This document shows positions 25,875 to 31,402 of a stretch of DNA of 64,000 nucleotides, piece after piece. The DNA comes from Pseudomonas sp. R5(2019). Lineage in GTDB: Bacteria > Pseudomonadota > Gammaproteobacteria > Pseudomonadales > Pseudomonadaceae. How positions within the stretch are numbered: the first letter of the stretch is position 1; every line of letters starts with the position of its first letter. Under the pieces are notes generated by a model, which saw only the letters and a program-made list of their open reading frames with translations, ran no database searches and was not told the origin of the DNA. A program made the position numbers and the translations under genes. The DNA is taken from NCBI RefSeq assembly GCF_009905435.1, contig NZ_JAAAMT010000005.1, positions 62,001-126,000 of the forward strand. The letters are read 5' to 3'.

Positions 25875-27800
25875 TCAATACAACTGTCGAGTAGCCTGCA
25901 GCCCCGCCAGCAACAACCGCTGATACAAATCCTCCCGCAACCCCTGCGGATCAGCCAGTTTCATACGCGCCAAATGTTCCGGATAAGCCTCAGGCGCCGG
26001 TGCATCCAGCGCTGCCTTGCCCAACTCCAGAATCTCGCTGAGTTTGAACTTGCTCTTGAGCCAGTTCAGCGCCCGCAACAGGTCACGCTCCTGCTCGGTG
26101 AAGTCACTGCCCAGCGGATATTCCGGAAACAACCGCGCATGCCGGCTGACAATCGCCTGCAAACGCTGTGGTGTGTTGTCGGCAAAGCGTGGATCAAGGC
26201 GAAAATCCTTCGGCAGCTTGCCCGCCTTCTGCGCCTGTTCGATCAATTCCAGCTGAAACCGTGAATCGCTGATGTTCAGCAAGGCTTCGATCACCTTGGC
26301 ATCCGTCTGTCCGCGCAAGTCGGCAATACCGTATTCAGTCACGACGATATCGCGCAGATGCCGGGGAATGGTGCAGTGGCCATATTCCCAGACCAGGTTG
26401 GAAGTCACCTCCCCGCCCGACTCGCGCCAGCTGCGCAGCAACAGGATCGAACGTGCGCCTTCCAGCGCGTGCCCCTGCACCACGAAATTGTACTGCCCGC
26501 CTACACCGCTGAGCACCCGGCCATCCTCCAACTGATCGGCCACGCCGGCACCGAGCAGGGTCACGCAGAATGCGGTGTTGATAAAGCGCGCATCACGCCG
26601 CTGCAGGCGCTTGAGCGTCTCCTGGCCATACAGCTCGTTGATGTAGCTGATCGCGGTCATGTTGAAGCGCGCCAGGGTGTCCGGCGGTAACTCGCGCAGG
26701 CGCTGGTAAAACTGCCGGGGCCCGAGGAAGAAGCCGCCATGTACCAGCACCCCACCGGTTTGCGCGGCTTCGTCCAGCGTTCCGGCGTTAGCGGCGCGCT
26801 GGCGTTCTGCATCCGGATAGACGCGGCGGCGCACGATGCCGGCCTCGACCAGCGCCAGCAATCCGTTGACGAACATTTCGCTGCAACCGTAAAGGCCCTG
26901 CGCAAAAGGCTCCAGCCCGCCCTCCCGGTCAATCAGCGTACTCCAGGGCAGCAGATCCACCTCGTTGAGCACGGCGCGGTATCCGTCGTTATCGGCCTGA
27001 CGCGCCATCAGTGCAGCCGTCAAGGCATCGCCCATGGCACCAATGCCGATCTGCAGGGTGCCGCCATCGCGCACCAGGCTGCTGGCATGCAGACCAATAA
27101 AGTGATCCTGAACGCCGACCGGCATATTGGGCGTGGAGAACAAGGTGCGGTGCTCGGATTCATCGAGCAGGATGTCGAAGTCGGCGCTGTCCAGCTCCGA
27201 ATCGCCGGGCATATAGGGCAAGTCGGCATGAACCTGACCCAGCAGCAGGATAGTTTCGCCTTGCGCGCGGCGCCTGGCGATCATCGGCAGCAAGTCGAGG
27301 GTAATGTCCGGGTTGCAACTGAGGCTGAAACGATCGGCCCGCCCCGGGGCTTGCGCCACCAACTGGGCGACCAGGTTCAGGCCCTTGGCATTGATATCGC
27401 GAGCAGCGTGGCTGTAATTGCTGCTGACGTAATCCTGCTGGGCCACGTGGCTGTTGAGCAGGCTGCCAGGCTGCAGGAAGAACTGCTCGACATGAATATT
27501 CGCCGGTAGACGGTCGCGGTGCAGGTCCGCGAGGTAATCCAGCTCGGGGTAATCGCCGAACACCCGCTCGATGAAGGGCTCCAGAAAGCGCTCTTGCAGG
27601 CCGTCGCCTACCGCCGGCCGACCGAGACTCAGAGCGGTGTAAATCGTCAGCCGGCGCTCAGGCAGCTGACTGACCCTGGCGTACAAGGCATTGACGAAGC
27701 GATTGGGTTTACCCAGCCCCAGCGGCAGGCCCAGATGAATATGCGCTGGCAAGCGTTTCAGCACCAGATTCACCGCGCGCTCGATCGAACAGGTTTGCAT
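25875..27800 (-). CDS. Acetyl-CoA hydrolase/transferase family protein
   Basis: This 641-aa protein is of the family that includes 4-hydroxybutyrate CoA-transferase and acetyl-CoA hydrolase. Typical blocks are the N-terminal LGLPLGLGKPNRFVNALY, the GGTLQIGIGAMGDALTAAL glycine-rich CoA-binding stretch, and SGVGGQYNFV with VVTEYGIADLRG near the C-terminus. It is about 150 residues longer than simple family members, as in the other Pseudomonas proteins at this locus. The specific CoA ester is unknown. The ATG at 27800 is clear. Confidence 0.88.
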   Translation of the reverse strand: MQTCSIERAVNLVLKRLPAHIHLGLPLGLGKPNRFVNALYARVSQLPERRLTIYTALSLGRPAVGDGLQERFLEPFIERVFGDYPELDYLADLHRDRLPANIHVEQFFLQPGSLLNSHVAQQDYVSSNYSHAARDINAKGLNLVAQLVAQAPGRADRFSLSCNPDITLDLLPMIARRRAQGETILLLGQVHADLPYMPGDSELDSADFDILLDESEHRTLFSTPNMPVGVQDHFIGLHASSLVRDGGTLQIGIGAMGDALTAALMARQADNDGYRAVLNEVDLLPWSTLIDREGGLEPFAQGLYGCSEMFVNGLLALVEAGIVRRRVYPDAERQRAANAGTLDEAAQTGGVLVHGGFFLGPRQFYQRLRELPPDTLARFNMTAISYINELYGQETLKRLQRRDARFINTAFCVTLLGAGVADQLEDGRVLSGVGGQYNFVVQGHALEGARSILLLRSWRESGGEVTSNLVWEYGHCTIPRHLRDIVVTEYGIADLRGQTDAKVIEALLNISDSRFQLELIEQAQKAGKLPKDFRLDPRFADNTPQRLQAIVSRHARLFPEYPLGSDFTEQERDLLRALNWLKSKFKLSEILELGKAALDAPAPEAYPEHLARMKLADPQGLREDLYQRLLLAGLQATRQLY

Positions 27801-28016
27801 TGTGTCTGCCTCCCTCCGTTTCCACTCAGACTAACCGATAGGGGAGCCAAAAATTGGCTTTTGATGGCTTTTTATTCACTCAACGAACAACCTTAGAAAA
27901 GCTTTAAACATAAAAAGCACCTGTTAATTCAAGCAGTTGAGCATCAGAAAATTGAAGCTTCGAACTTAGTAAATTTTCTTACAGAAAATACTTTCAACAC
28001 TCAAAGACCTTTCTTA
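27801..28016. other. A+T-rich region upstream of the membrane-protein island
   Basis: The sequence changes from GC-rich host DNA to A+T-rich DNA near 27850. The frame of the 78-aa gene remains open upstream to 27897, and an ATG at 27864 lies in the same frame before a TAG at 27894. The region may hold the island promoter and a damaged or misread N-terminus. Confidence 0.5.
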
Positions 28017-28253
28017 TTGACCTCAAATTCCGGGTCAACAACACTTGCTGCGGAGGGGCTAAAAATTTATATTCATCGTGGCTCTCTACCTTTTCTCTCG
28101 ATTGTGCGGCTATTGATAGTTCTGGTTATCTTCGATTTTGTTTATATGCTGTTCACGGAGCGCCTCCCTAATTTGCCAGGATCAATCGGAATTCTTGAAA
28201 GCGAATTCGGATTTCCTTTCCTTCCGCATGAAATGCGATATATACGCGAATGA
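28017..28253 (+). CDS. Small single-helix membrane protein, unknown (start uncertain)
   Basis: From a TTG at 28017 the product is 78 aa with one hydrophobic helix (FLSIVRLLIVLVIFDFVYML) and the tail FPFLPHEMRYIRE. Its stop overlaps the next ATG (ATGA). No good ribosome binding site precedes the TTG; GGAGGGG at 28051-28057 is followed only by ATT codons. The frame is open 120 bp further upstream. It may be a truncated gene, a small partner of the transporter or a peptide cargo. No family is recognised. Confidence 0.45.
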   Translation: MTSNSGSTTLAAEGLKIYIHRGSLPFLSIVRLLIVLVIFDFVYMLFTERLPNLPGSIGILESEFGFPFLPHEMRYIRE

Positions 28254-29122
28254 GACAAAATTCCTGGCTGATATTTATAGGAACCGCGATCGCTCTTTCG
28301 AGCATCGGGTTCCCTTTCATGATCGGAAAAGTTATTGATACGTATTATGCAACCAACACCATCGATAATTTTTTTCTTTTTCTGGCCGGTTTGGCGATTA
28401 TAACAACCCCTTGCTTGAGATTTGGCGCAAATCTAATACTGCAAAAATACAATGCAAAAACCCGTGCGCCTCATAAAAAGCTATTAATAATTAACATCAT
28501 AAAACCCAGTAATAGAAAAATCTCACAGGGCCGAGCTATCGATCTCATCGACGGCGATACCGATGGCACAATCTATTTATATCACGGGATATACTTAGAT
28601 ATAACATTAAACTTGGCCCTTTTGATTTTCGCCTTCGCCATAATTTTATGCAACTATCCGATTTATGCGCTGCCTCCCGCAATCGCAATCGTGTTCTCAT
28701 TAATAGTGCACTGCCTGTACCAAAGAAAACTACCCAATTTATTCAACCAGTACATCGAACAAAATACTATTTTCCTAGAAACTGTTTGCACAGATCTGAG
28801 ATCCAATAAAAAACTAATTCTCAAACACTACACATCCGCTTGCAGAAAAATCTTAAAGCCTTGTGTAACGGCCAACCTTAAAGTTTGTACGCTCGAATTT
28901 CTTTCTAGCTTATCTTATCTCTTGGGCTTGGCAACATTGATTTTAATTTACACCTTTACAACGAGCCACGAGACATCATCAATAGGTGCATTCATCGCTG
29001 TCGCACTGTACATTGAAAAGGCGCTCGCACCCGTATTTAGCTTAGTCGGAATATATTACTCAACTGCAGAATCTTTAAGTAGACAGAGGCGGGCCGACAG
29101 CATTTTAAGGACAACACCCTGA
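28250..29122 (+). CDS. ABC-exporter-type membrane subunit without ATPase domain
   Basis: This 290-aa protein has about six hydrophobic segments. Its opening layout (WLIFIGTAIALSSIGFPFMI then GKVIDTYY) is like the first helix of type-1 ABC exporters, and it ends where a nucleotide-binding domain would normally start (SRQRRADSILRTTP). No Walker motifs follow. ATGA overlap upstream and TGATG overlap downstream couple it to its neighbours, so it probably pairs with the following membrane-ATPase fusion. The A+T-rich codon use differs from that of surrounding genes. Confidence 0.75.
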   Translation: MRQNSWLIFIGTAIALSSIGFPFMIGKVIDTYYATNTIDNFFLFLAGLAIITTPCLRFGANLILQKYNAKTRAPHKKLLIINIIKPSNRKISQGRAIDLIDGDTDGTIYLYHGIYLDITLNLALLIFAFAIILCNYPIYALPPAIAIVFSLIVHCLYQRKLPNLFNQYIEQNTIFLETVCTDLRSNKKLILKHYTSACRKILKPCVTANLKVCTLEFLSSLSYLLGLATLILIYTFTTSHETSSIGAFIAVALYIEKALAPVFSLVGIYYSTAESLSRQRRADSILRTTP

Positions 29123-30720
29123 TGTTCCCAATAATGGTTATGCACATTAAGCCCATTGTGGCTGCCTTGTTTTTTTTCATCGGGGCTGCGTGCCTTCAAA
29201 TGGGAATGCCGTATTTGCTATCTCGCACAATCAATGATATGTCGGAGTCGACTTATACCCACACTTTAATTTTTGGAATCATAGCATGCTACGTAACAAA
29301 GAACATTTTCCAAGGGGCCGCCAACATACTTAGCAACTATATAGAAACTGCCATACGCTTAAGCCTGACCGGTTACATTTATAACAACGCAAAACAAAGT
29401 ATTGGCACAACCATCACCCTGATCAAGGAGGACGCCGCACGTGTCGCCGCCGCCGTATCGAACACATTGCAACTATCAGGATCAATATGCGTTACTCTTT
29501 TCAGCTGCGCACTTATCATACGGAAAAATATTGACTTTTTACCTCTGCTCGCCATAGCAATCTTATTGAGCTATCTCTATTTACGAAAAACCACGCCATT
29601 CGTTGTGTCGAATTACCAAGATGAAATTTCCAAAGAGGAACTATACAAAGCTTCGGTGATTGAGCTTATTGACACCGCGTCATTGGACGAGAGCAAATAC
29701 AGCATGAAATTACAAGAAACCTATAGGTATCTTGAAAAATCGATCGACGCTCAATATCGATACGAGAAAAAAAACTTAACATACGCGTTCGCGCCTGAAT
29801 TATTCATGGCGGCATGCACAATAATAGTTTTGATCTCCACCGTATCACTGTCCCCCTCGACACTTGGCAGCACGCTTATTTACTACTTGGGGTATTTAGG
29901 ACTTTTTTTCCATGGCGTGCTACCAATCAATTGCTTCAGCCTTATCGTTAATCGGCACAAACCAATCAATAAAACGCGTATTCAATGGGACTTGACCATG
30001 AACAATTTATACTTGCGGGAAGTTCGTCTAAAGCCCAGTTGTGAAAAACTGGCCTTTCAGAGCCTTTTTCCAATTACATTTGAAAGCCCCATCACCATAA
30101 TCATGGGCGAAAACGGCTGCGGCAAATCGACGCTACTTGAAAGTATTGCCATAAAGCTGGGATGCAACCCTGAAGGCGGCAGTAAAAACTTCAGGTTTCA
30201 AACGCAGCACACTCACTCCGACCTGCATACTCATCTACAGATATCCAAGGGGCATCTGAAAGAAAAAGACCTGTATTTCTACAGGGCTGAGTCGTTTTAC
30301 AACTTAAATACTGAGATTAGGCGGCTTGACGAGGAAGAAGGATTTGGACCAGAAATAAAATCTTATTATGGTGGGCGCGATCTTCATACTGTATCGCATG
30401 GGGAAGCAATGGAAGCGTTATTCAAACATCGATTCAGAAGCCAAGGGCTTTACATTCTGGACGAGCCGGAAGCGTCCCTGTCACCACTCCGACAATTAAG
30501 CTTCATTCAGCGAATTACAGATTTGGTACACTCAGGCTCTCAATTTCTAATTGCTACTCACTCACCGATCCTGATGTTTACCCCCAACGCTGTGTTGCTT
30601 CAAATAATAAACGGCGAGCTAGTCCCAATCATTGCGCAAGAAACAGAAGCCTTCAGTATCTATAGGGCGGTTTTGAATACACAGGGTGAGTATCTAAAAA
30701 AAATGCTCAATGGCCGCTGA
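29122..30720 (+). CDS. Fusion of ABC-exporter membrane domain with COG3910-type ATPase
   Basis: Residues 1-275 of this 532-aa protein resemble a type-1 exporter membrane domain (PYLLSRTINDM after the first helix, five to six helices). From about 296 (LYLREVRLKP) an ABC-type ATPase begins: Walker A GENGCGKST at 329-337, signature-like VSHGEAM at 424-430, Walker B YILDEPEAS with Asp447/Glu448, and the H-loop ATHSP at His480. This half matches the stand-alone predicted-ATPase family COG3910 as I know it, not the usual exporter NBD. The cargo is unknown. Horizontal acquisition is suggested by its A+T richness. Confidence 0.8.
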   Translation: MFPIMVMHIKPIVAALFFFIGAACLQMGMPYLLSRTINDMSESTYTHTLIFGIIACYVTKNIFQGAANILSNYIETAIRLSLTGYIYNNAKQSIGTTITLIKEDAARVAAAVSNTLQLSGSICVTLFSCALIIRKNIDFLPLLAIAILLSYLYLRKTTPFVVSNYQDEISKEELYKASVIELIDTASLDESKYSMKLQETYRYLEKSIDAQYRYEKKNLTYAFAPELFMAACTIIVLISTVSLSPSTLGSTLIYYLGYLGLFFHGVLPINCFSLIVNRHKPINKTRIQWDLTMNNLYLREVRLKPSCEKLAFQSLFPITFESPITIIMGENGCGKSTLLESIAIKLGCNPEGGSKNFRFQTQHTHSDLHTHLQISKGHLKEKDLYFYRAESFYNLNTEIRRLDEEEGFGPEIKSYYGGRDLHTVSHGEAMEALFKHRFRSQGLYILDEPEASLSPLRQLSFIQRITDLVHSGSQFLIATHSPILMFTPNAVLLQIINGELVPIIAQETEAFSIYRAVLNTQGEYLKKMLNGR

Positions 30721-30737
30721 ATGTATCTGCCATTCAG

Positions 30738-30768
30738 CCCCATACCCCGGCGTACCGAGGTGATGGGG
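30738..30768. terminator. Hairpin at the end of the membrane-ATPase operon
   Basis: CCCCAT-ACC (30738-30746) pairs with GGT-ATGGGG (30759-30768, one-base bulge), with an inner CGG/CCG. It lies 18 bp after the stop, between convergent genes, and no strong T tract follows. Confidence 0.5.
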
Positions 30769-30829
30769 TTCATCAACAGGCCGGCTCTCCCAATCGTCGT
30801 GTGCGCATCAGGATGCCCTTACAAGCTTA

Positions 30830-31255
30830 TTACAGCCCCGACATTTTCTTGATTGCGCCCTTGAGCTCTTCATCCGAGCAATCGGCGCAGGTGCCTTTAG
30901 GCGGCATCGCATTGACGCCGGTGATGGCCTTGGCCAGGATGCCATCCAGACCACCCTGGTGGTCGGCGCGCGCTTTCCAGGCGGCGGCGTCACCGATCTT
31001 CGGTGCACCCAGCAGGCCAGTGGCGTGGCAAGCGTTGCAGTGTTTGGCAATGATGTCGTCCGGGGTCTTGGCACCACCGCCACCGCTTGCGCTGGCAGTG
31101 ACTTCCATCCCTTTGCATTCCTTGCCTTGTACGCAGACTTGACCGACCGGCTCCAGCCGTTTGGCGATCTCGTCGTTGGTTGTAGCCTGTGCGCTCACAG
31201 CCCATAGGGCCAATACGACTGCTGGTGCGGCCAGCATATTCTTGATTAGATTCAC
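30830..31255 (-). CDS. Cytochrome c5-type c-type cytochrome
   Basis: This 141-aa periplasmic electron carrier has a signal peptide (LIKNMLAAPAVVLALWAVSAQA), one heme-binding CNACH motif, and MPPKGTCADCSDEE with the Met axial-ligand region and an extra Cys pair typical of cytochrome c5. The GTG at 31255 follows GAGGGT and gives the signal peptide directly; the longer frame upstream was rejected. It is convergent with the foreign island, marking the return to core genome. Confidence 0.9.
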   Translation of the reverse strand: MNLIKNMLAAPAVVLALWAVSAQATTNDEIAKRLEPVGQVCVQGKECKGMEVTASASGGGGAKTPDDIIAKHCNACHATGLLGAPKIGDAAAWKARADHQGGLDGILAKAITGVNAMPPKGTCADCSDEELKGAIKKMSGL

Positions 31256-31402
31256 GCGTACACCCTCATGGTGGCTGTTCACGCCCGCGGCCACGGAATC
31301 GCAGGCGGCGCAAGTATAACGACAACCCTGCCCCACTGAAACAACCCTATAGTCGCAGGGGGAATTCCCCGGTACAACCGTCCATTCGGGCGTCTGTACT
31401 CC

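What the first reader, a model, noticed from the sequence alone, without database searches (positions are those of the whole stretch)
28250..30720. ABC-exporter-like membrane domain fused to a COG3910 ATPase
The second membrane gene ends in an ABC-class ATPase whose blocks (NCxGKST-type Walker A, YGGRDLHTVSHGE, YILDEPEASLSP, ATHSP) match the stand-alone COG3910 family, not the NBD of exporters. The first membrane gene has the same layout with no ATPase. This looks like an exporter-type pair powered by a different ATPase, possibly an unknown transport or membrane-sensing machine. I know of no named system with this layout.
Basis: partly seen in the sequence, partly recalled or inferred. Interest (0 to 1): 0.74.

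Follow-up and report, generated by a model that had tools for sequence, protein, structure and literature searches.

The report
Split lanthipeptide exporter with borrowed ATPase
These two Pseudomonas genes are the likely remains of a gene cluster for a modified peptide (a predicted lanthipeptide): a predicted two-part membrane exporter that would be powered by an unusual ATPase, which reads as one protein with the membrane part here, while every relative examined with both genes whole encodes the two separately.

The parts
28017..28253 (+). ORF whose C-terminal 33 codons (28149-28247) are the remnant of a LanM (class II lanthipeptide synthetase); its stop overlaps the start of TMD-A
   Evidence: tblastn of relatives' LanM against window 27700-28300: 45% over 33 aa, E 9e-8 (L035) and 48% over 23 aa, E 1e-4 (L032); no LanM match in the window's genome
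28250..29122 (+). TMD-A: NBD-less ABC-exporter half (290 aa), open
29122..29904 (+). TMD-B: second NBD-less ABC-exporter half, main part (in frame with the ORF start)
   Evidence: 58% identity to P0001, a free-standing 292-aa protein; eight-row alignment; PF00664 2.9e-7 in P0062, none in P0001, P0096 or the L032 copy; not folded
29909..29995 (+). TMD-B: conserved C-terminal tail, in the next reading frame, with its own stop
   Evidence: three-frame reading against the tails of relatives
29880..29910 (+). stretch in which the reading frame changes relative to the relatives; holds a run of T
   Evidence: sequence, frames
29998..30720 (+). ATPase (240 aa) of the stand-alone 'predicted ATPase' (COG3910-like) kind, own ATG; ABC-ATPase motifs present
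   Evidence: 58-65% to the six operon ATPases aligned, 32-50% to 26 stand-alone ones; AAA_15/AAA_21; AF2 pLDDT 91.8

Best explanation
The window holds the likely remnant of a class II lanthipeptide-type operon (precursor - LanM - TMD-A - TMD-B - ATPase) whose last three genes are predicted to form a heterodimeric ABC-type peptide exporter that would be powered by a separate COG3910-like ATPase instead of ordinary fused NBDs. Shown: the five-gene operon in relatives; the LanM tail in the window; the predicted exporter fold of TMD-A; no NBD or C39 peptidase in the exporter genes scanned; the frame change that makes TMD-B and the ATPase read as one ORF; retention of the exporter trio in loci that lost precursor and LanM. 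Inferred: TMD-A and TMD-B pair, two ATPase copies sit under the intracellular loops as NBDs would, hydrolysis drives the modified peptide out, and the same pump protects the cell from it (as McjD does for microcin J25), which would explain exporter-only loci. In the window TMD-B is probably broken, so the copy there is probably decaying.
Confidence: 0.6

Rival explanations
1. The ATPase is an accessory protein of lanthipeptide clusters (protection, regulation or quality control) and not the motor; TMD-A/TMD-B use an NBD encoded elsewhere or act without one.
For: Sister clusters L116 and L117 encode a precursor-like ORF, a LanM-like protein, an exporter with its own ABC_tran NBD (E 2.3e-25 and 1.3e-24) and in addition an AAA_21 ATPase (E 2.5e-36 and 2.6e-25). 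One stand-alone relative of the window's ATPase was seen without TMD genes beside it, L036.
Against: No other NBD-like ORF was seen in the inserts (ORF lists). The AAA_21 proteins of L116/L117 match the operon ATPase only over short stretches of about 20-120 residues (best 50% over 40), so they are a different subfamily. The ATPase is kept in 10 of 11 relatives with open TMD-A and TMD-B (exception L045).
Confidence: 0.3
2. The window's 532-aa ORF is a genuine working fusion of membrane domain and ATPase.
For: The ORF is open across the junction, and exporters normally carry TMD and ATPase in one chain.
Against: 0 of 10 relatives with whole genes are fused; the conserved end of the membrane protein lies in the next frame with its own stop. 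One database protein, P0010, also joins the two, but by losing the middle.
Confidence: 0.04
3. Exporter-only loci, the window included, are nothing but decay: the exporter genes have no function after loss of LanM and precursor.
For: In the window TMD-B is frame-shifted; L047 and L037 hold only fragments; L045 has a truncated ATPase. L034 and L044 share one deletion, so they are not independent.
Against: L034, L044 and L078 keep all three genes open; dN/dS 0.09-0.32 for L034 against L044; in L034 and L044 the genes still sit behind the operon's leader region.
Confidence: 0.35
4. A phage-defence or stress-sensing machine, as PADLOC hits to AriA, PtuA and Mad3 might suggest.
For: Whole-protein E-values down to 6e-14 in PADLOC (25 of 144 families shown).
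Against: In the rows shown, the best stretches are short and lie at the Walker A or Walker B region that such ATPases share; the neighbours in relatives are lanthipeptide genes.
Confidence: 0.03

Closest known systems
McjD, exporter and self-protection protein of microcin J25
   Different: McjD is one chain with its own ABC NBD; here two different NBD-less halves and a separate ATPase of another branch.
LanT (C39-peptidase ABC exporter of class II lanthipeptides) and PCAT1
   Different: No C39 domain and no fused NBD in the genes scanned; precursor without an evident double-glycine site (my reading).
LanFEG immunity transporters
   Same: Anatomy (recalled): two different small permeases and one separate ATPase; the listing of PMC4828448 names LanFEG as immunity.
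   Different: No match to a permease family of that kind was seen for TMD-A or TMD-B relatives; the fold match of TMD-A is to exporters.
Stand-alone 'predicted ATPase' family (COG3910)
   Same: 32-50% identity to the window's ATPase in 26 stand-alone rows aligned, shared motifs.
   Different: Operon ATPases are a separate clade, shorter at the N-terminus, and lie in a lanthipeptide-type operon.
Sister Pseudomonas LanM clusters L116 (G386) and L117 (G105)
   Same: LanM-like proteins closest to that of L032 among the six compared; similar Cys-rich ends of the precursor-like ORFs; an AAA-type ATPase nearby.
   Different: Exporter is one chain with TMD and ABC_tran NBD; the ATPase is AAA_21, about 400 aa; their LanMs score below the TIGR03897 cut-off (246.7 and 217.8 against 304).

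Membership tests
Class II lanthipeptide biosynthesis operon (for the relatives) | LanM synthetase above family cut-off | tested here: met
   L032 LanM 390.8 bits, cut-off 304, TIGR03897; DUF4135 and LANC_like; also G314:C12 393 bits; the broken or shortened copies of G169 and G231 fall below
Class II lanthipeptide biosynthesis operon (for the relatives) | Adjacent Cys/Ser/Thr-rich precursor | tested here: met
   6 of 14 loci, 48-65 bases before LanM in the four measured; no family model matched the precursor
Class II lanthipeptide biosynthesis operon (for the relatives) | Product is a lanthionine peptide | not testable with these tools
   needs mass spectrometry
Class II lanthipeptide biosynthesis operon (for the window itself) | LanM and precursor present | tested here: not met
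   Only a LanM tail; no precursor match beyond chance in 27700-28300; no LanM in the genome as held, 97% complete; precursor not searched genome-wide
Type IV ABC exporter | Six-helix exporter TMD fold | tested here: met
Type IV ABC exporter | ABC_tran NBD fused to the TMD | tested here: not met
   TMD-A has none; the ATPase is a separate gene in 10 of 10 whole relatives and scores higher with AAA_15/AAA_21 than with ABC_tran
LanT (peptidase-containing exporter) | N-terminal C39 peptidase | tested here: not met
   No C39 match in the window's two genes or the L032 genes
LanFEG | LanE/LanG-type permeases | tested here: inconclusive
   No such family among NCBIfam matches of L032 TMD-A, L032 TMD-B, P0001, P0062, P0096; I did not check that the library holds such models
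COG3910 | Formal COG assignment | not testable with these tools
   No COG library; some relatives carry the source name 'predicted ATPase', which is the COG3910 title quoted in PMC9973855
Working transporter powered by this ATPase | ATPase contacts the TMDs | not tested
   No complex was modelled here

The most novel reading that the evidence does not exclude
An ABC exporter that exchanged its nucleotide-binding domains for an ATPase of the RecF/SMC-like 'predicted ATPase' branch: TMD-A and TMD-B as a heterodimeric peptide channel, with a COG3910-type ATPase dimer as its motor, serving both export of and protection from a Pseudomonas lanthipeptide.
Probability: 0.5. Interest if true: 0.78.

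Novelty: new variant of a known kind. Interest (0 to 1): 0.58.

Why it matters
If the ATPase is the motor, exporter membrane domains can be driven by an ATPase from outside the usual NBD families, which would give the COG3910-like family, for which I found only the name 'predicted ATPase', a role and make a motor swap testable. It also gives a concrete Gram-negative lanthipeptide family with a short, simple operon, and a set of exporter-only strains in which self-protection can be tested.

Tried and rejected
Alignment A5 of the whole 532-aa ORF with separate TMD-B and ATPase rows was misaligned and was not used for folding; TMD-A and the ATPase were folded alone instead. A search with gene A alone found only itself; an alignment of it found 16 proteins, itself included. 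Phage-defence reading: rejected on short motif-region hits. Rfam: no match in 27700-31400. One search scored 7,997 candidates and listed 120 of 214 proteins, so the tree holds only part of the family. Rows dropped: P0001, P0062, P0073, P0096, P0010, P0034 from the tree (membrane, joined or odd proteins); these, P0005, P0121 and all P ids above 95. Papers: searches showed me no description of this exporter; PMC8719888 (passages and one section), PMC8704066 and PMC9059233 (passages) list class II lanthipeptide or LanM clusters in Pseudomonas, and I cannot tell whether they are this one; PMC12715929 passages; PMC9973855 one passage; PMC5641919 and PMC4828448 search listing with the start of the abstract only.

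Full report
What is in the window. Two ORFs, 28250-29122 and 29122-30720, lie in a low-GC insert (about 0.39-0.45 against about 0.6) between genes that I name from sequence as acetyl-CoA hydrolase and cytochrome c5. The first has no Pfam match; the second ends in an ATPase with AAA_15 47.4, AAA_21 46.3 and ABC_tran 31.1 bits (cut-off 25).

The fusion. P0001, 58% identical to the membrane half, is a free-standing 292-aa protein. Its conserved end is missing from the window's frame but is readable in the next one, with a stop at 29993-29995; the ATPase has an ATG at 29998. The frame changes between about 29880 and 29910, where there is a run of T. In 10 of 10 relatives with whole genes the two are separate, overlapping by 8-20 bases in 5 of the 7 measured. 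I conclude that the window's fusion is a frame change, either a true mutation or a sequencing error.

What relatives show. At 6 of 14 (L038-L043) there is a precursor gene followed by LanM. LanM of L032 passes TIGR03897 (390.8, cut-off 304). LanM is intact at L039, L041 and L043; it has an internal stop at L038, is split at L040, is shortened but open at L042, and is cut by the contig end at L046. It was not found at L044, L045, L047, L078 or in about 1 kb upstream of the trio at L034; L037 was not searched with LanM, but only about 300 bases lie there between the hydrolase gene and the ATPase fragment. The window has only the LanM C-terminus, overlapping the TMD-A start by 4 bases as in L041, and no LanM match in its genome. 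Twelve of 14 loci lie in the same slot (one flank only for L046); L039 and L040 do not.

Rarity. TMD-A gives strong matches in 7 of 398 genomes of the genus, the window's own included, and none beyond the window's own in 148 genomes drawn from the family and 369 from the class at E 1e-12. The scan of genome contigs with a TMD-B alignment found 10 loci, all Pseudomonas; it depends on two short patterns.

The ATPase. Eight operon ATPases form one clade, SH-aLRT 100, among 123 rows (quick method). Thirty-four positions are shared by at least 7 of 8 of them and rare (<15%) in 89 stand-alone rows; 15 lie in residues 89-143 (range chosen afterwards). I read this as adaptation of the part that in NBDs touches the membrane domains. 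It is an inference.

Export or protection. The trio is open at 10 of 14 loci; at 6 of those LanM is broken, shortened or gone (L034, L038, L040, L042, L044, L078), and none of the 3 loci with intact LanM has a broken trio. At L034, L044 and L045 the leader region of the operon is kept (72-76% over about 80-100 bases) and TMD-A stands where the precursor starts; at L078 I found no such match. Between L034 and L044 dN/dS is 0.32 (TMD-A), 0.09 (TMD-B), 0.10 (ATPase, only 8 changes), much as between loci with LanM. This pattern is expected if the pump also protects, as McjD does (title and start of abstract of PMC5641919).

Against. LanM occurs in 24 of 398 genus genomes at E 1e-20, over the cut-off in 19. 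Apart from the operon described here I count 21 other LanM loci there; I fetched 14 of the 21. In 12 of these no exporter with membrane part and NBD was evident next to LanM, by a listing of ORFs and motifs only, without a domain search; in two (L116, L117) there is an exporter with its own NBD plus an AAA_21 ATPase. So an AAA-type ATPase near LanM need not be the motor. The L116/L117 ATPases match the operon ATPase only over short stretches, and their LanMs score below the family cut-off though both LanM domains pass in Pfam.

In print. Three papers list class II lanthipeptide or LanM clusters in Pseudomonas (PMC8719888, PMC8704066, PMC9059233; passages, and one section of the first); I saw no description of this exporter or of a COG3910 protein as a transport motor in my searches.

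Noticed in passing
L116:5489-11678 and L117:4468-10388: Two sister Pseudomonas LanM clusters with Cys-rich precursor-like ORFs, a one-chain ABC exporter with NBD and an AAA_21 ATPase; in L117 the ATPase gene overlaps the exporter gene.
   Followed up: partly
L108-L115, L118-L121: Another type of LanM (about 1020-1066 aa) in Pseudomonas that stands without an evident dedicated exporter next to it (motif listing only).
   Followed up: no
P0036: A COG3910-like ATPase preceded in the same chain by what looks to me like the tail of an ABC exporter NBD; 11 member sequences. Another hint of exporters and this ATPase as neighbours.
   Followed up: no
L036:11113-11859: A stand-alone relative of the operon ATPase (46% to the window's) in another Pseudomonas, next to an oxidoreductase that looks GMC-like (my reading), without TMD genes beside it.
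   Followed up: no
window 27900-28016: Low-GC stretch before the LanM remnant with a weak resemblance to the LanM N-terminus; not significant.
   Followed up: partly
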